Positions 18,267 through 29,371 of a stretch of 33,190 nt of DNA are shown here, piece by piece (position 1 is the stretch's first letter; every line of letters starts with the position of its first letter). Position numbers and translations under genes: made by a program. The notes beneath the pieces are model-generated. The model saw only the letters and a program-made list of their open reading frames with translations, was not told the origin of the DNA and ran no database searches. The stretch lies in the NCBI GenBank assembly GCA_016930445.1, contig JAFGGT010000084.1:1-33190 (forward strand). The letters run 5' to 3'. The stretch comes from Candidatus Methanofastidiosia archaeon (GTDB lineage: Archaea; Methanobacteriota_B; Thermococci; Methanofastidiosales; NM3).

Positions 18267-18944
18267 ATGCTAAAGGACATCAGGGCCAAACAGCACAAAG
18301 GATTTGATTGCACATCTGTAGATGAGGTGGTGGCAGTCGAGAGCCCATTCACCATAAGGTGCATGGGATATGAGTTCAGGGGATTCGCAACGCCTATCGA
18401 GCTCAAGGAGCTATGTATAGGCCATCTTGCCACCCAGGGCATAATAGGCCGCATGGAAGATATAGGGAAGCTGGATGTAATAGTCGAGGATAATGGATTT
18501 ACCCTATGGGCATCCATCAATGCTCATCCATTCGTATTGAAAGGAGGAATGGGCATAAGCCTAGATCCAGACGACATCTACAAGATGAACGACTATGTCA
18601 GGGAGAACGCAGAGCTCTTCGATAAATCCGGCGCCCTGCACTACGCCTATGTTTTCGACACAAAAGGCAATATCCAATGCAACGCCTATGACATTGGCAG
18701 GATGAACGCCATCGACAAGGTCGTGGGGAAATGCCTACAGATGCGATTGGACCTAAACGACAAGATAATATACACTACGGGCAGGATTGCCACCAGGACT
18801 GTCGAAAAGGCGATAAGGGCTCATATACCTGCCATCATCTCGAAGGCGCCTCCAATGTACGAGGCCATTGAGCTGGCAAAGGAGCGTGGGATAACGCTCA
18901 TCGGTTTCTCAAGGGGAAGGAGATATAACGATTACACAGGATGA
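18267..18944 (+). CDS. fdhD: FdhD-like formate dehydrogenase accessory sulfurtransferase
   Basis: SGALHYAYVFDTKGNIQCNAYDIGRMNAIDKVVGKCL...TTGRIATRTVEKAIRAHIPAIISKAPPMYEAIELAKERGITLIGFSRGRRYNDYT. Confidence 0.88.
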   Translation: MLKDIRAKQHKGFDCTSVDEVVAVESPFTIRCMGYEFRGFATPIELKELCIGHLATQGIIGRMEDIGKLDVIVEDNGFTLWASINAHPFVLKGGMGISLDPDDIYKMNDYVRENAELFDKSGALHYAYVFDTKGNIQCNAYDIGRMNAIDKVVGKCLQMRLDLNDKIIYTTGRIATRTVEKAIRAHIPAIISKAPPMYEAIELAKERGITLIGFSRGRRYNDYTG

Positions 18945-19508: not shown

Positions 19509-20348
19509 CTAAGCTGGACATAGCTCCTTCCTTCTCTCCCTATAGTGCTCCAGTATGTACTTTGTTATGATCACTGATGTGAAGCCTATGGTACCAAGCT
19601 TTCCTCCACCGCCCGGGACCATGTCTACTGTCACTGTGAACAGGATCGCAACAAAGACACCGCATGCCGCAAAGTGCCTGTAGTCTTGGAAAACGCCTGG
19701 CACGGCTGTCATTCCGGCAAAGGAGGCCGAGAATCCCACCAACGCCAACGTAAGACCATAGGTGGACGATATCTCAGGGAATAGCGCCCCGATTATGATA
19801 CCCACCAATGCGGACCCTAGTACGGCATCGGCGCACTTATCCGTGAGCAGCCTCTGGAAGAGGTCCCTTCGTATGAACCATGTCAACGGTGTCAGAACTA
19901 CGGATGTTACAAGCACCAGTAGGAACCATTTAACCGTTATCGCCTGTGATGCCGTTGCTACCACGCCATTGTAGTCCTTGCCGACAAGCGCCAGAACGAT
20001 CAGTCCGAAGCATACTGCCATAAAGGCCGTAGTTCCGAACTTTCCGCCATGGCCATTGAGGTAGTCCTTCCAGATAACATATATCAGACCAGCGATTATT
20101 CCAAAGAATATGGAAAAATATATGTTTTCAATGACCAATGAGGAGCTCATACCGGCAAAGGAGCCACAGAAGATCTGCCCTGCATATCTTTTCAGGAACA
20201 GGCCTCCTAGGAATCCCACAATACCGGATGCTAGAACCGCATTCATGTCATATCCACCTATCACCAGCTCGTTGTTAAGGTACCATGTGACTACGGTACC
20301 TCCCAACACAGCCAATATGGATCTAAAATCCGATCTTTCGTAAGGCAT
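19509..20348 (-). CDS. Polytopic membrane protein with internal duplication, unknown function
   Basis: Roughly ten hydrophobic segments; repeated AVLxSxxVGxxxGxLF / SFAGM / GGKxGTxxF blocks. ATG at 20348 is preceded by a GGTG SD-like sequence (ORF track starts at a TTG at 20360). Confidence 0.8.
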   Translation of the reverse strand: MPYERSDFRSILAVLGGTVVTWYLNNELVIGGYDMNAVLASGIVGFLGGLFLKRYAGQIFCGSFAGMSSSLVIENIYFSIFFGIIAGLIYVIWKDYLNGHGGKFGTTAFMAVCFGLIVLALVGKDYNGVVATASQAITVKWFLLVLVTSVVLTPLTWFIRRDLFQRLLTDKCADAVLGSALVGIIIGALFPEISSTYGLTLALVGFSASFAGMTAVPGVFQDYRHFAACGVFVAILFTVTVDMVPGGGGKLGTIGFTSVIITKYILEHYRERRKELCPA

Positions 20349-20349
20349 T

Positions 20350-22401
20350 TCATTCACCAATTGTCTCTATTTTACATGCACATACCTTGAATTCAGGTAT
20401 CTTCGCTATTGGATCTAAAGCGGGATTTGTCAGCATGTTCGCAGCGCATTCGTTGAAGTGGAACGGAATGAACACAGTCTTCAGCGGCACCTTGCGCGTC
20501 ACGTAGGCAGGGATGTCTATTGTTCCTCTCCTCGTGCTTACCTTGACCTTTTCCCCATCCTTTATTCCCAGTTCCTCCGCATCCTGGGGATTTATCTCGA
20601 CATATCCTGTCGGCACCTCTTTGTTAAGCTTCTCAGAGCGCCTTGTCATGGTCCCTGTATGGAAGTGGAACAGGATACGCCCAGTAGTCAGGGTGAACGG
20701 GTATTTTTCATCAGGCAGCTCTGCAGGAGGTTTGTATTCGACCGCAAAGAAATGGCCCGGGCCGCGCGAACATTTGTCCTTGTGCAGGAAGACGGTCCCG
20801 GCATGCTCGGCATTCGGACATGGCCATTGCAAATAGCCAAGTTCATCGAGCCTGTCGTACGTTATCCCACCATAGATGGGCGTCAGGGATGCTATCTCGT
20901 CCTGTATCTCCTTCGGAGACTTGAATTCGAATCCCTTGGAACCCATTCTTTGGGCAAGTTCGCATATTATCTTCCAGTCCGGCCTTGAGTCGCCTATGGG
21001 TTCAATGGCCTTCCTGACCCTCTGAACACGCCTGTCCGTTGCAGTGAAGGTCCCATCCTTCTCTAGGAACGAAGTCCCTGGAAGAACCACATCGGCAAGG
21101 GCTGCAGTCTCGGTCACGAAGAGGTCCTGTACGACCAGAAAGTCGAGATTCTCCAGGGCTTCCTTGACATGTGTTATGTCAGGGTCGGAGATCATGGGAT
21201 TCTCACCCATGATGTAGATGCATTTGAGATTGCCCTTGTGGGCCTCGTTCATCATCTCTACAACGGTGAGACCGATGTTGTCGGGTATCTTCTCGGCCAT
21301 TCCCCACGCCTTCTCGAACTTCTCCCTGAAATCAGGATTCACGACTGCCTGATATCCGGGGAAGACGTTCGGAAGAGCGCCCAGGTCGCATGCGCCCTGC
21401 ACGTTGTTCTGCCCCCTGAGGGGGTTGACCCCCGTGCTCGGCTTGCCCAGATTCCCTGTGACCATCGAAAGGTTGGCACAGGACTTGACGTTGTCGACGC
21501 CGGTGGTATGCTGCGTTATCCCCATGCTGTATATTATTGAGGCGCTATCTGCACCTGCGTACATCCTTGCCGCCTTGACGAGGTCTTCCTTCGGAATGCC
21601 TGTGATCTCCTCCACCCTCTCGGGAGTGTAATCCTTCACCAGCTCCTTGAGCTCCTCAAAGTTCTCTGTCCTAGTCGTTATGAACTCCTCGTCTGCCAGT
21701 CCTTCTTCTATTATGACGTGTATAAATCCGTTGATCCATGCCACGTCCGTTCCAGGTCTCTGTCTCAGGTGCAGGTCGGCGAACTTTGAAAGCTGTATCG
21801 CCCTTGGGTCTATGAGGATGATCTTTGCCCCATTCTCCTTTGCCTTGAATATCCTGGACCCTATCAAAGGATGCTGCTCTGTTGTGTTCGAGCCTGTTAT
21901 TAGGATGCAATCCGCCTCTTCGACCTCGGGAGTGCTGTTGGTCATAGCGCCGCTGCCAAATGCCGCAGCCAGCCCTGCCACTGTGGAGGCATGGCACAAT
22001 CTTGCACAATGGTCCACGTTGTTCGTCACTATGACGCTTCTGGCGAACTTTTGCATCAGGTAGTTCTCCTCGTTGGTGGTCTTTGCAGAGGACAATAGTC
22101 CAAGTGCATTCGCTCCGTGGGTCCCCTTGATGTCCTTGAACTTGGAGGCTATGAGCCCATAGGCCTCATCCCAAGAGGCTTCCCTGAACTTTCCATTCTC
22201 CTTGATCAAAGGCGTCTTCAGCCGGTCCCCGCTATATACAAAGTCCACCGCGTTCCATCCCTTGATGCAAAGCTTTCCCTGGCTTATGGGATCCTCCTTG
22301 CACGGAAGTACATCCTTGGCCACGCCATCAATGACTTCTATGTAGTACTTGCACCCGCAACCACAATATGGGCAAGTCGTCAAAACTGTCTCATATTCCA
22401 T
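20350..22401 (-). CDS. fdhA: Formate dehydrogenase alpha subunit (Mo/W-bisMGD, Cys form)
   Basis: CPYCGCGCKYYIEV...CIKGWN; active-site DHCARLCHASTVAGLAAAFGSGAMTNS with Cys at the Sec position; QNNVQGACDLGALPNVFPGY. Confidence 0.95.
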   Translation of the reverse strand: MEYETVLTTCPYCGCGCKYYIEVIDGVAKDVLPCKEDPISQGKLCIKGWNAVDFVYSGDRLKTPLIKENGKFREASWDEAYGLIASKFKDIKGTHGANALGLLSSAKTTNEENYLMQKFARSVIVTNNVDHCARLCHASTVAGLAAAFGSGAMTNSTPEVEEADCILITGSNTTEQHPLIGSRIFKAKENGAKIILIDPRAIQLSKFADLHLRQRPGTDVAWINGFIHVIIEEGLADEEFITTRTENFEELKELVKDYTPERVEEITGIPKEDLVKAARMYAGADSASIIYSMGITQHTTGVDNVKSCANLSMVTGNLGKPSTGVNPLRGQNNVQGACDLGALPNVFPGYQAVVNPDFREKFEKAWGMAEKIPDNIGLTVVEMMNEAHKGNLKCIYIMGENPMISDPDITHVKEALENLDFLVVQDLFVTETAALADVVLPGTSFLEKDGTFTATDRRVQRVRKAIEPIGDSRPDWKIICELAQRMGSKGFEFKSPKEIQDEIASLTPIYGGITYDRLDELGYLQWPCPNAEHAGTVFLHKDKCSRGPGHFFAVEYKPPAELPDEKYPFTLTTGRILFHFHTGTMTRRSEKLNKEVPTGYVEINPQDAEELGIKDGEKVKVSTRRGTIDIPAYVTRKVPLKTVFIPFHFNECAANMLTNPALDPIAKIPEFKVCACKIETIGE

Positions 22402-23178
22402 CTAGAACTCCTCCTTCGTATAGAGCGGATTGACTTCCTCAGTATTTCCGACCACATAATCGAAAAGCTCCTTCATGTCATCGCGGAGCAATCTGTTAAT
22501 GGTCATTAGCGGTATTCCAGCCGGACATGCGGATTCACACTCACCACAACCGACACACTTCCCAGCAAGGTGGAAGGCCCTGATGAGGTGGTATACGGGG
22601 AAGTCCGGAGGCAGCCTGCCCTTCTTCAGCCATAGCTCGTTCTCAAGCTCGCAGTCCTTGCAGAAGCACATCTGGCATATGTTCCTACAACCATAGCACT
22701 TGTTGCACTTCTCGAACTGCTTCTTCCAGAATTCCAGCTTCTCGGCGGTGGACATCCTCTTGTAGTCTTCGAACGCATCCCCGAGCTCAAGCTCCTCCAG
22801 CTTCTCGCCTATGAGGTCCTCGCAGCTAGGGTAAGGGACTGAGCAGTTGCAATCCTTGGCGGTCTCTTCGTCACATGCGATGCCGATTATACTCAGCTTG
22901 TCCATGTCGATCTGATTCCTCTTCGCCATCTCAAGGAGGGCCCTCTCATCACAGCCCCGGCAAAGTATCGCTATCTTGTATTCCGGGTCCATCTTGTGCA
23001 TCTTCATGGCTAGTGTGGCCAACGGATAGTGCGGTGAGAGCCTCAATGATGAGAGGTCGTCCCCTTTCTTGAAGACGCACGGGGTCGTCATTCCAAGGAC
23101 GTCCTTGAGAGCGATGACGGCAGTTACCTCGCCGGAATCGAGCATCTCAGCTATCCTCTTTCGTACCTCGTCCTCCAT
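22402..23178 (-). CDS. fdhB: FdhB/FrhB-like beta subunit with C-terminal 4Fe-4S domain
   Basis: ILCRGCDERALLEMAKRNQI, IGIACDEE, CNKCYGCRNICQMCFCKDC, CVGCGECESACPAGIP. Confidence 0.8.
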   Translation of the reverse strand: MEDEVRKRIAEMLDSGEVTAVIALKDVLGMTTPCVFKKGDDLSSLRLSPHYPLATLAMKMHKMDPEYKIAILCRGCDERALLEMAKRNQIDMDKLSIIGIACDEETAKDCNCSVPYPSCEDLIGEKLEELELGDAFEDYKRMSTAEKLEFWKKQFEKCNKCYGCRNICQMCFCKDCELENELWLKKGRLPPDFPVYHLIRAFHLAGKCVGCGECESACPAGIPLMTINRLLRDDMKELFDYVVGNTEEVNPLYTKEEF

Positions 23179-23609
23179 CAGATCGCCTCCCTTGCGATCT
23201 CCCTGAGCGGGCTTGGACCAAGCTTTTTGATATCGTCACGGAGTTCCTTCATGGTCTTTGCGAACTCTTCTCCCTCTGCTGCAGATATCCATTCCAGCCT
23301 CAGCCTTTCGGGCTCGATGCCTATATGCTCGATGAGCCTCTTTAGAAGGTCTATCCTCTTCTTCGTTCTGTAATTCCCATCGACGTAGTGACAGTCGCCC
23401 GGATGACAGCCGCCTATGAAAACGGCGTCGGCACCGGTCTGGAACGCCTTTATTATCATCTCTGCGTTTATCCTCGAAGAGCACATCACCCTTATGACGC
23501 GTATGTTCGCGGGATAATGCATACGAGACGTTCCTGCCATGTCTGCTCCTGCGTAGCAACACCAGTTGCATAGGAATCCCACAATCTTAGGTTCCCATTC
23601 ATCGGACAT
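23178..23609 (-). CDS. mvhD: MvhD-type iron-sulfur subunit
   Basis: KIVGFLCNWCCYAGADMAGTSRMHYPANIRVIRVMCSSRI, AVFIGGCHPGDCHYVDGNY. Confidence 0.94.
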   Translation of the reverse strand: MSDEWEPKIVGFLCNWCCYAGADMAGTSRMHYPANIRVIRVMCSSRINAEMIIKAFQTGADAVFIGGCHPGDCHYVDGNYRTKKRIDLLKRLIEHIGIEPERLRLEWISAAEGEEFAKTMKELRDDIKKLGPSPLREIAREAI

Positions 23610-25565: not shown

Positions 25566-26441
25566 TCATTCTCCCCCCTTCTTGAGATCCTTGAGCTTCT
25601 TTTCAAGGTCGCGTGTCGATACCAGATGGGTGTGCAAAGCGAGATGCTTCGGCCTTATCCCAAATGCAAGCCCGAACAGCTGATTGAGGTGCAGTACAGG
25701 TATCTCGGTCGTCTTAAGCTTCTTTTGGCTCTGGTCGAACTGCATGTGGCAGAAGGAACAGATATTGACGATGGCGTCGACATTCGCATCCTTCATATTG
25801 TTCAGCTTGGTGTTGATTATCTTCAGTGACACATCCGGCTCGCCACTCATGACGCCTCCGCCTGCGCCGCAGCAGGTCAGGCCGTCCTTGAACGGGACCG
25901 CCTTGCAACCTGCAAGTCCCACCAGCTCATCGAGCAGTGTCGGCCTCTCAGAGTTCTCGCCTGTCACCGAGGATGGTTTAAGATAATGGCAGCCGTAATG
26001 GACAGCCACGTTGAGCCCCAGGTCTATCTCCTTGAGCTCCGCTATCTTTTCCTTGTAGTTCTTCAATATATCCACGAAATGTATTGGATGTACCTTTCCC
26101 TTGTACTCAGCATCTATCCTGCCAAGATGGTCGTTCACAAAGCCCATGAGGTCAGGGTCGTTCTTGAGGGCGTACCACACATTGTGGAGCGTACCGTAAC
26201 AACCTGAGCAGACGGTCATCGGATTTAGGCCATCCTTTTCAGACTGGGAAAGATTCCTGGCCCCCATCACCAGCCATGACGGCTTGTCATAGCATGCCAG
26301 CACTCCAGGCGGAGGACAACATGAATATTCATAGTCCCTCAGGCCTATTCCGAGCTTCTCGAAAACGATCCGAGTGGCCTTCTCTATCCCAGGATAAACG
26401 TTCTTTGCGATACAGCCTGGGAAGAATGCATATTCCTCCAT
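25566..26441 (-). CDS. hdrB: Heterodisulfide reductase subunit B (HdrB-like)
   Basis: FFPGCIAKNVYPGIEKA, YSCCPPPGV, VCSGCYGTL, YGCHYLKPS, TCCGAGGG, ICSFCHMQFD cysteine-rich CCG modules. Confidence 0.94.
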   Translation of the reverse strand: MEEYAFFPGCIAKNVYPGIEKATRIVFEKLGIGLRDYEYSCCPPPGVLACYDKPSWLVMGARNLSQSEKDGLNPMTVCSGCYGTLHNVWYALKNDPDLMGFVNDHLGRIDAEYKGKVHPIHFVDILKNYKEKIAELKEIDLGLNVAVHYGCHYLKPSSVTGENSERPTLLDELVGLAGCKAVPFKDGLTCCGAGGGVMSGEPDVSLKIINTKLNNMKDANVDAIVNICSFCHMQFDQSQKKLKTTEIPVLHLNQLFGLAFGIRPKHLALHTHLVSTRDLEKKLKDLKKGGE

Positions 26442-26926
26442 TATCTCAGGCCTCCCTTCTTGGTGATCTCAAGACCGTCGAGAAGCCTTTGGAACTTTTT
26501 AAGGGTCTCAGCATTCGTCGAAACATCGTATGCTTCTTTTTTAAGCCCTATTATGGCCCTGATCTTGGACACTTCTGGTGATAGCGGTTGGCCTGCCCCA
26601 GTATCGTAAAGGCTCTTGATAATGATCTTCGGAACGTCTGACATCGTCGGAAAGTACCCTTCCTCGACAGCCAGATTCCTTAGCTCTATTATCATGTCGG
26701 TAGTTTTTACTTCCTTAGGGCAACGTTCCTGACATGTAAAGCATGTTGTGCAATCCCACAGCTCTTCAGTCTTGATAACGTCCATGCCCATCCTTGCCAT
26801 GTGAATCAGTTTTCGCGTACGTAAACTGCATTCACGTCCGGAAGGGCAAGATCCCGTGCATCTGCCGCACTGGATACACGCGTATCCATTTCCGTCGATT
26901 AAGATTTCTTTAACTGATTTTCCCAT
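26441..26926 (-). CDS. hdrC: Heterodisulfide reductase subunit C (HdrC-like)
   Basis: CIQCGRCTGSCPSGREC and CTTCFTCQERCPKEV; ATG at 26926 preceded by GGTGGTC SD, favoured over the ORF-track start at 26968. Confidence 0.92.
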   Translation of the reverse strand: MGKSVKEILIDGNGYACIQCGRCTGSCPSGRECSLRTRKLIHMARMGMDVIKTEELWDCTTCFTCQERCPKEVKTTDMIIELRNLAVEEGYFPTMSDVPKIIIKSLYDTGAGQPLSPEVSKIRAIIGLKKEAYDVSTNAETLKKFQRLLDGLEITKKGGLR

Positions 26927-28085
26927 TAGACCACCAATTATTTCGTTTAAGGTTGAAGTAAGTGTCAAATAGACCTTTGGAGAGTTTTTTGGTAGCTTCT
27001 ATCAACATCTCGGCCTCTTTACTGGTGTCTTGCCCCCCTTTCGATAAGACACGTATCTCGGCCAGCAAGGAGTGTATCAGCCTCGCATTCGTTTCCAGCC
27101 CTTTAGGATCCTCTATGGGCAGAAGATCATACCTCTGCAAAGTCCTTATCGTCTTCCATGTCTCGTTCAGGAAGTAGATTATCTTCTCATCCTCCCAGAT
27201 CTTTTCCCCTATCTTCCAACGGAGATTGACGAGACCGCTGGATAGCACCCTGGCGGAGGAAAGCTCCCTCTTGATGATGCCCAGCCATTCGCCGAGATCA
27301 TCGCCGTGCAGAAGCACAATGTCACCTTTCTTTGCTGGACCGATGGCAAAAGGCTTGATCTTGCTCATTATGTCGTATAGAAACATGTTTGCCCTTGGGT
27401 AACTTGGGTGCTCGAAATGAGGCCCAAATAGGTATAGGCAGCCTCTGCCTACCGGCACCCTTATGCCAGCTGCATTGCCGACCATGGTCTTCTTCGCTGT
27501 ATCCTCCTCTACGAGATACAATGTCTTATCATCGAAGTCTACATAGTCTAGCAGCCTATTCTCTGCAGGAGCCATCATTGATGGACCGCCATATAGCGGT
27601 GCCTTGAAGCTCATGTCCTTGTTACCAACTTCCAAGGAACCCCTGACCGGGTGAAATACAAAACCGTCCTTGTATGGCACGATGTACTTGTACTTCATCC
27701 TGATCGCCTCTGGGGGGCGTTCAGAAAAATTGTTTATCGGGACCTCGGCAAAATTTAACCATGGCATTGGGTCATCGTTGAATATTATAGAAAGATAAGT
27801 GCCTGCACATACCCCAATATAAGTGCCACCGTTCTTGACAAACTGTCTTATTTTGTCAAGCCCCTCTTCCAGAAGCCCATCAGCAATCAGGAAGGGATCC
27901 CCTCCGGGCAATACCAAGCAATCGTAGTTACTTAGCTCACCGTTCTTTATGTCAGATTCATCCAGAAAATAAACCTCATTAAAATCTAGCGAATCAAAGG
28001 TCTTCACGAACCATATCCATGAGTAGGATGCCCCATGACCAATATATATGGCAATTTTCAGGTTCTCAGAGTCCATTCTCCCCAA
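26910..28085 (-). CDS. BPL_N-like (glutamine amidotransferase-fold) domain protein with extra C-terminal helical region
   Basis: IAIYIGHGASYSWIWFVKTFD, LVLPGGDPFLI, nucleophile-elbow-like YIGVCAGTYLSI, GRGCLYLFGPHFEHPSY; TTG start at 28085 or ATG at 28076. Confidence 0.75.
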   Translation of the reverse strand: MGRMDSENLKIAIYIGHGASYSWIWFVKTFDSLDFNEVYFLDESDIKNGELSNYDCLVLPGGDPFLIADGLLEEGLDKIRQFVKNGGTYIGVCAGTYLSIIFNDDPMPWLNFAEVPINNFSERPPEAIRMKYKYIVPYKDGFVFHPVRGSLEVGNKDMSFKAPLYGGPSMMAPAENRLLDYVDFDDKTLYLVEEDTAKKTMVGNAAGIRVPVGRGCLYLFGPHFEHPSYPRANMFLYDIMSKIKPFAIGPAKKGDIVLLHGDDLGEWLGIIKRELSSARVLSSGLVNLRWKIGEKIWEDEKIIYFLNETWKTIRTLQRYDLLPIEDPKGLETNARLIHSLLAEIRVLSKGGQDTSKEAEMLIEATKKLSKGLFDTYFNLKRNNWWSNGKIS

Positions 28086-28141: not shown

Positions 28142-29371
28142 CTACATCTTAAACGCATCAGCGTCGAAGTCAATGCCTGTCGATATGCTCGCAAGCTCTG
28201 CTAGTGTCTCGGCGTTCAAGGCCTCAGCCTTTGCAGCTAGGACTGGGCAGATGCCAGCGATGTATGCGGCCTCTGTTCTCTCGCTCTCTGGAGAGATCGG
28301 GCTGTATACGGCGTCAAACTTCTCTGCTTCTGAGGATTCAGCTAACTTCTCGAGGTCTGCAATCGCACCCTTGGCATCCTTAGCCTTTATCTTTGATGCT
28401 ATTGCCACTGGGTTCAGGCCAAGCCTGAATACTGCCTCGAGGACCTCGCCGGCCGCTTCTGGGTTGACCGCATTTCCAATTGCGGCAAATCCAATTGGGT
28501 CGGATACTAGCACTCCTGGATTCCATATGTCAGACATGGCCATGACACTGGGGTCCTCCCTGTACTTGAGATAGACCTTGTATGCCAGGGGGCTGTTGAA
28601 GTCTGCCTCTACCCTGTGCGTCTGCTTGGCTGCGGCGGCCTTGACGGCAGCCGGGATGTTCGCGTATGCTGCTGCGTCGAATCCCTTTGCGCTTCCGACC
28701 TGGGACACGACATCCTTGAACACTTCCTCGACCTTCTCGAGGAATCCTTCAGCATCGTCAACATCTAGTTCGCCCATACCTCTCATCGCTATTGCCTTGA
28801 GATTCTTCTCACCGAATATGGCGCCGAAACCGAATCTGTCCCCGTCTCCCCAATAGTTATTAATGACTTGGGCAGATGTGAGCTTGTTCTCTCCGGCCTT
28901 TCCTATGACAAGAAGCTGGATCCTGTCCTCTCCCTGTTCCTCTCTTATCGCATCAGTCGTCTGCCATGTGTCCTTGCCCCAGAGGGCGGTGGCATCCACG
29001 AAATCAGCTATCTCATCATGCAACCAAAGGTATGTTGGCTTCTCAGCCTTGTTCTTGACAACTACAAATGAATATCCTGTAAACTTAAGCTCTGCTCCAG
29101 CGTTCCAAGTGATCGGTGCGTGGGCTATCTTGCCCGTTACTGGGCTCTTTGCTGTAAGAACTCCAAGGCAGGAACCTGGAACCATAGTGCTGGTGAAAAG
29201 ACCGCTACCAAAAACGATCGGGTCTTCGTCCTTATACTTCTCATACAATGCAAGATTTAACTTTGCTCCGCCCACGTATTCTTTGACAAACTTCTCCTCG
29301 AGTTCGACTTCCTCTGCTTCCCCTGTGGCCAGATCCACTACAAGATAATATTCAGTATACATGTAATCCAA
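28142..29371 (-). CDS. Aldehyde ferredoxin oxidoreductase N-terminal-domain protein, lacking Fe-S ligand cysteines
   Basis: NAGAELKFTGYSFVVVKNKAEKPTYLWL and GDGDRFGFGAIFGEKNLKAIAMRG match AOR N-domain motifs; only two Cys in 409 aa; TTG start with AGGTGG SD. Confidence 0.75.
   Translation of the reverse strand: MDYMYTEYYLVVDLATGEAEEVELEEKFVKEYVGGAKLNLALYEKYKDEDPIVFGSGLFTSTMVPGSCLGVLTAKSPVTGKIAHAPITWNAGAELKFTGYSFVVVKNKAEKPTYLWLHDEIADFVDATALWGKDTWQTTDAIREEQGEDRIQLLVIGKAGENKLTSAQVINNYWGDGDRFGFGAIFGEKNLKAIAMRGMGELDVDDAEGFLEKVEEVFKDVVSQVGSAKGFDAAAYANIPAAVKAAAAKQTHRVEADFNSPLAYKVYLKYREDPSVMAMSDIWNPGVLVSDPIGFAAIGNAVNPEAAGEVLEAVFRLGLNPVAIASKIKAKDAKGAIADLEKLAESSEAEKFDAVYSPISPESERTEAAYIAGICPVLAAKAEALNAETLAELASISTGIDFDADAFKM

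What the first reader, a model, noticed from the sequence alone, without database searches (positions are those of the whole stretch)
19509..20348. Duplicated polytopic membrane protein translationally linked to formate dehydrogenase
Seen: two halves share blocks (NAVLASGIVGFLGGLFL...GSFAGM...GGKFGTTAF versus DAVLGSALVGIIIGALF...ASFAGM...GGKLGTIGF). About five hydrophobic segments per half would give an inverted-topology repeat. It is not the FNT formate channel pattern and starts right after the fdhA stop. Established: 5+5 inverted repeats are typical of transporters and channels. Inference: a candidate new formate, CO2 or oxyanion (molybdate/tungstate) transporter.
Basis: partly seen in the sequence, partly recalled or inferred. 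Interest (0 to 1): 0.65.

Follow-up and report, generated by a model that had tools for sequence, protein, structure and literature searches.

The report
Unclassified membrane protein beside formate dehydrogenase
Next to the formate dehydrogenase gene of an uncultured methane-producing archaeon lies a gene for a two-part, ten-helix membrane protein of no recognised family; it sits where related archaea carry their known formate channel, so it may be an undiscovered way of bringing formate into the cell, though this is not yet tested.

Summary
The ORF at 20348-19509 encodes 279 aa. Its ATG lies one base after the fdhA stop, behind a ribosome site shared by relatives. The two halves are true repeats (hhalign E 2e-18). 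Ten hydrophobic segments with strong positive-inside bias give a 5+5 inverted topology. No Pfam, NCBIfam, PHROGs or PDB family matches. All five genomes held of its taxonomic family (Methanofastidiosia MAGs) carry it directly after fdhA, facing fdhD-mobA. None of the five has a FNT formate channel. In the same class, the 11 Thermococcales genomes with the closest fdhA are exactly the 11 with FNT; in the four I opened, FNT lies in the fdh cluster. Distant homologues exist away from fdh: a fused one on a Natrinema plasmid, and an adjacent split pair on a Pseudoalteromonas plasmid whose topologies match the two halves. So the protein belongs to a wider, unnamed inverted-repeat family and is not FDH-specific. 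Best reading: a transporter or channel, here most likely for formate (about 50%). A urea-transporter-like fold is only a hint (Foldseek probability 0.84, TM 0.44, not significant; no sequence support). Molybdate/tungstate and CO2 roles have no positive support.

The parts
19509..20348 (-). Protein X: 279-aa, 10-segment membrane protein with 5+5 inverted repeat
19941..20348 (-). N-terminal repeat (residues 1-136), motifs CGSFAGM and GHGGKFGTTAF
19512..19940 (-). C-terminal repeat (residues 137-279), motifs SASFAGM and PGGGGKLGTIGF
20350..22401 (-). fdhA, catalytic subunit of formate dehydrogenase (TIGR01591, 908 bits vs cut-off 666)
22402..23178 (-). 258-aa iron-sulfur protein in the FdhB position, no Pfam/NCBIfam match
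   Evidence: no family; cysteine motifs read from sequence
23178..23609 (-). mvhD/FlpD
   Evidence: PF02662
23610..25562 (-). hdrA
   Evidence: NF040770 HdrA2, below its cut-off
25566..26441 (-). hdrB
   Evidence: TIGR03288, slightly below cut-off
26441..26968 (-). hdrC
   Evidence: TIGR03290, below cut-off
18267..18944 (+). fdhD-like FDH sulfurtransferase, convergent
   Evidence: PF02634
18941..19507 (+). mobA-like Mo-cofactor guanylyltransferase; its stop abuts the stop of X
   Evidence: PF12804 / NF001457

Best explanation
X is a membrane transporter or channel of a so far unnamed inverted-repeat family, and in this archaeal family it most likely serves as the formate entry route for the cytoplasmic formate dehydrogenase-heterodisulfide reductase complex encoded by the same operon. 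Shown here: duplication, predicted 10-segment 5+5 topology, coupling to fdhA, conserved linkage, absence of FNT. Inferred: that it transports anything, that the substrate is formate, and that the two symmetry-related GGK motifs, predicted to sit at the starts of segments 5 and 10 and to reach the membrane from opposite sides, form the anion-binding or gating sites.
For: 5/5 family genomes have X directly 3' of fdhA with a conserved ribosome site. FdhA is a true Fdh-alpha. None of these 5 genomes has FNT (PF01226), while the 11 Thermococcales genomes with the closest fdhA are exactly the 11 with FNT, and FNT lies in the fdh cluster in the four opened; X and FNT never co-occur. X is absent from sister families lacking this fdh cluster. 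The genome has McrA, and published phylogeny places Methanofastidiosales HdrA-linked molybdopterin proteins with FdhA, i.e. formate oxidation (PMC12054007). The lysine of GGK is invariant in both halves of the orthologues and in Natrinema.
Against: Remote homologues lie outside any fdh context, so formate cannot be assumed for the whole family. Only five genomes of one taxonomic family, so the linkage counts are phylogenetically not independent. The same genomes carry other possible carriers: SatP-family PF01184 in 4 of 5 (but also in fdh-less relatives) and 7-11 MFS matches each. One of the split Pseudoalteromonas halves has GGA instead of GGK. No structure good enough to see a pore.
Confidence: 0.5

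Rival explanations
1. X is a transporter/channel for another small solute or ion used with FDH (molybdate, tungstate, bicarbonate/CO2, or a counter-ion), not formate.
For: Convergent neighbours fdhD and mobA are Mo-cofactor genes; conserved lysines would suit several anions; homologues occur away from fdh.
Against: X is in the fdhA gene string and not in the mobA one; molybdate/tungstate uptake is known to be done mainly by ABC importers (general knowledge; their presence was not tested here); no positive evidence for these substrates.
Confidence: 0.22
2. On fold rather than substrate (compatible with the best explanation): X is a remote member of the urea transporter/NqrB/RnfD/Amt fold group, i.e. 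a urea-channel-like pore that in these archaea passes formate (also small and planar) or another ion.
For: AlphaFold2 model of the orthologue in G001 (pLDDT 66, pTM 0.68) gives, among the 50 listed PDB matches, its highest probabilities and TM-scores to the Desulfovibrio urea transporter 3k3f (0.84, TM 0.44) and 3m6e (0.77, 0.42) and RnfD 8rbq_D (0.60, 0.37); NqrB, a relative of RnfD, is reported to resemble urea and ammonium transporters (PMC10643135). Same 5+5 plan.
Against: Foldseek E 0.5, not significant; not reproduced with the poorer window model (pLDDT 46); profile-profile scores against urea transporter halves are within the range of 44 unrelated polytopic proteins; no PF03253 match.
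Confidence: 0.25
3. X is a small membrane anchor or assembly factor for the FDH-Hdr complex, not a transporter.
For: Strict linkage and coupling to the catalytic subunit.
Against: Homologues occur as stand-alone genes without FDH; ten segments, short loops and internal inverted duplication are typical of transporters; no conserved paired histidines for haem.
Confidence: 0.13
4. Formate enters these archaea through SatP or a MFS carrier and X does something unrelated, kept near fdhA by shared ancestry.
For: SatP-family gene in 4/5 genomes and several MFS; only one taxonomic family sampled.
Against: SatP occurs equally in relatives without this fdhA; X and fdhA stay coupled although X has diverged to 58-62% identity between genera.
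Confidence: 0.12

Closest known systems
FNT formate/nitrite channel family (FocA, FdhC, NirC; PF01226)
   Same: Genomic role: next to or in the cluster of fdhA in Thermococcales; small polytopic membrane protein, likely small-anion passage.
   Different: No PF01226 match in X or anywhere in the five genomes; 10 rather than about 6 segments, different repeat motifs; profile comparison with FocA at background.
Urea transporter family (PF03253) and NqrB/RnfD/Amt fold group
   Same: 5+5 inverted repeat; moderate, non-significant fold similarity of the predicted model.
   Different: No sequence-level similarity above background; the UT signature LPxxTxPF is absent.
Natrinema zhouii WP_226777817.1 hypothetical protein (plasmid)
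   Same: Homologous over nearly the full length of X: phmmer E 2e-30 to 8e-27 with four orthologues, 37-39% identity; same two SFVGM...GGK(L/Y)G repeats.
   Different: N-terminal extension with two extra predicted segments; no annotated fdh genes within 6 kb.
Pseudoalteromonas THAF3 WP_151174268.1 + WP_152441809.1
   Same: Adjacent small genes (one-base overlap) equal to the N- and C-terminal halves, with matching predicted topologies.
   Different: Split into two polypeptides; first lacks segment 1; second half has GGALG instead of GGKLG; no annotated fdh nearby.
Oxalate:formate antiporter OxlT (MFS) and SatP (PF01184)
   Same: OxlT was proposed as the formate carrier in an FdhC-less methanogen (PMC8115248); SatP moves small monocarboxylates (general knowledge).
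   Different: X has no MFS or PF01184 match; different size and repeat.

Membership tests
FNT formate/nitrite transporters | Match to PF01226 / FNT sequence profile | tested here: not met
   (no match); genome-wide absence in 5/5; FocA hhalign score at background
FNT formate/nitrite transporters | About six membrane helices per protomer | tested here: not met
   ten segments in all five orthologues
FNT formate/nitrite transporters | Formate or nitrite transport | not testable with these tools
   needs uptake assay
Urea transporter (UT) family | Match to PF03253 | tested here: not met
   no match for X; no PF03253 match in any of the five family genomes
Urea transporter (UT) family | 5+5 inverted-repeat fold of UT type | tested here: inconclusive
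   Foldseek prob 0.84, TM 0.44, E 0.5 on a pLDDT 66 model; not reproduced with the weaker model
Urea transporter (UT) family | LPxxTxPF signature in each repeat | tested here: not met
   X has GGK[LF]GT[TI][AG]F before segment 5 and 10 instead; profile comparison at background
Inverted-repeat secondary transporters/channels (general class) | Homologous halves with odd segment number, hence opposite topology | tested here: met
   (topology is a prediction); split pair with matching opposite predicted topologies
Inverted-repeat secondary transporters/channels (general class) | Demonstrated solute movement | not testable with these tools
   no experiment possible
b-type cytochrome membrane subunit of FDH (FdoI/FdnI type) | About four to five helices with conserved haem-binding histidines | tested here: not met
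   no paired conserved histidines inside segments; conserved H100, H225, H268 lie at segment edges and are not kept in Natrinema

The most novel reading that the evidence does not exclude
X founds a new transporter/channel family (fused in archaea, split into two half-size genes in a bacterium) whose methanogen branch has replaced FNT as the formate channel, giving a candidate answer to how some formate-using archaea without FdhC/FocA take up formate.
Probability: 0.4. Interest if true: 0.75.

Novelty: new variant of a known kind. Interest (0 to 1): 0.56.

Why it matters
Formate-using archaea without any known formate transporter have been reported (Samail Ophiolite Methanobacterium, PMC8115248; Lost City MAGs, PMC9469722, whose authors invoke 'uncharacterized proteins'). 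X is a concrete, testable candidate from another formate-linked methanogen lineage. The fused and split forms also give a natural case of inverted-repeat evolution: two adjacent half-size genes of matching opposite predicted topology in a bacterium, one fused gene in archaea.

Tried and rejected
FNT identity rejected. Urea-transporter membership rejected on sequence; fold link left as a lead. Weak phylum hits G101 and G044 (E about 0.01) are a different membrane protein lacking both motifs, probably a PrsW-like protease (that name is from memory). Viral-contig scans, phage tblastn, viral structure library and PHROGs found no relatives. Genome-contig scans reached only the same taxonomic family. 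Centres outside the phylum could not be used for genome searches. A literature search for the GGKLG motif gave nothing relevant.

Full report
Observation. The feature is an ORF on the minus strand, 20348 to 19509, 279 aa. The ATG lies one base beyond the fdhA TGA (20352-20350). A GGTGA ribosome-binding site 5-6 bases before the ATG is present in the window and two orthologues, and GGTGG in the other two. Between G003 and G004, the only unsaturated pair, dN is 0.008 and dS 0.185 for X, as for fdhA (0.008 and 0.17), so the gene is under purifying selection. X evolves faster than fdhA between genera (58-62% vs 78-80% protein identity to the window).

Internal repeat. hhalign of the N- and C-half profiles gives probability 99% and E 2.2e-18 with 27% identity over 100 columns. 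Within each of six proteins the two halves align with z 10-16 against shuffles. The shared core of both halves is V-x2-SA-x2-GL-x2-G ... SF-x-GM ... G-x-GGKLGT-x-AF. Ten hydrophobic segments are found in each orthologue and K+R are distributed 14:1, 12:1, 12:3, 15:0, 14:0, which predicts N-in, C-in and an inverted relation of the two halves.

Families. There is no meaningful match in Pfam, NCBIfam, PHROGs or PDB sequences for X or its homologues.

Relatives. Five genomes of one taxonomic family carry X, and in all of them X follows fdhA and faces mobA-fdhD; the string hdrA-mvhD-(FeS protein)-fdhA-X is read wherever the fetched stretch allows (in L008 and L009 the mvhD/FeS stretch was not called cleanly by the simple ORF picker). 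Public record names are archaeon NM3, Methanomicrobia archaeon SpSt-1146, Methanomicrobia archaeon CSMAG_1224 and Ca. Methanofastidiosia MAG 293; this points to the Methanofastidiosia (inference). X is otherwise absent from 115 genomes of the phylum.

Wider family. tblastn found a Natrinema zhouii plasmid protein of 325 aa (E 1e-5). In the reverse direction it matches all four orthologues searched at E 2e-30 to 8e-27 and aligns over nearly the full length. A Pseudoalteromonas megaplasmid carries two adjacent genes of 102 and 125 codons overlapping by one base. Both match the Natrinema protein (E 8e-5 and 1e-7). P0002 has four segments, equal to segments 2-5, and P0003 has five, equal to segments 6-10, with predicted orientations that match the two halves of X; P0002 scores slightly better with the N half and P0003 slightly better with the C half by profile, but the margins are small. 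Neither plasmid locus has annotated fdh genes within 6 kb.

Context and role. FdhA is above the curated cut-off for Fdh-alpha (908 vs 666 bits) and the genome has McrA. Nickel-iron hydrogenase genes are also present, so formate is not shown to be the only electron donor. A published survey groups Methanofastidiosales HdrA-linked molybdopterin proteins with FdhA (PMC12054007). In the four loci opened, FNT is adjacent to fdhA or within the same fdh cluster. Family f3 has a different, hydrogenase-linked FdhA and neither X nor FNT. The methanogens of family f4 have neither fdhA nor X. This mutual exclusivity is the main argument for formate. It rests on few independent lineages.

Alternatives for formate entry. 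SatP-family genes are in four of five genomes but also in fdh-less relatives; MFS carriers are numerous. They remain possible formate routes.

Structure. AlphaFold2 on the window protein failed (pLDDT 46). On the G001 orthologue it reached pLDDT 66, pTM 0.68 with a poor C-terminal end. In the PDB search no match is significant; the highest probabilities and TM-scores among those listed are to the Desulfovibrio urea transporter and RnfD. NqrB, a relative of RnfD, is reported to resemble urea and ammonium transporters (PMC10643135). Profile comparison with urea transporter halves taken from PDB sequences stays within the null of 44 polytopic archaeal proteins, and the weaker model did not reproduce the match. 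I treat it as a lead only.

Conclusion. X is a real, conserved, unclassified inverted-repeat membrane protein, coupled to fdhA in one archaeal family and related to stand-alone and split homologues elsewhere. A formate transporter or channel is the most likely role (0.5). The substrate is untested.

Noticed in passing
window 22402-23178 (-): 258-aa cysteine-rich protein in the FdhB position between mvhD and fdhA; no Pfam or NCBIfam match at the thresholds used, although conserved in the cluster.
   Followed up: no
window 28142-29371 (-): 409-aa protein with only the N-terminal domain of aldehyde:ferredoxin oxidoreductase (AFOR_N, residues 9-198), in a conserved string with a glcD-like oxidoreductase, an FeS protein and a 391-aa protein before hdrC (similar order in L006).
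   Followed up: partly
G047:C1:197271-199309: Thermococcales-type fdhA in two overlapping fragments (frameshift or assembly error) in a genome without FNT, unlike the genomes with an intact close fdhA, which all have FNT.
   Followed up: no
L080 and L081 (G006, G009): Family f3 has a 900+ aa FdhA-like protein inside a NuoE/F-like plus NiFe hydrogenase gene cluster, without FNT or X.
   Followed up: partly
L022:5926-6611: Pseudoalteromonas THAF3 split half-size membrane protein pair, one-base overlap, N-half with GGKLG and C-half with GGALG.
   Followed up: yes
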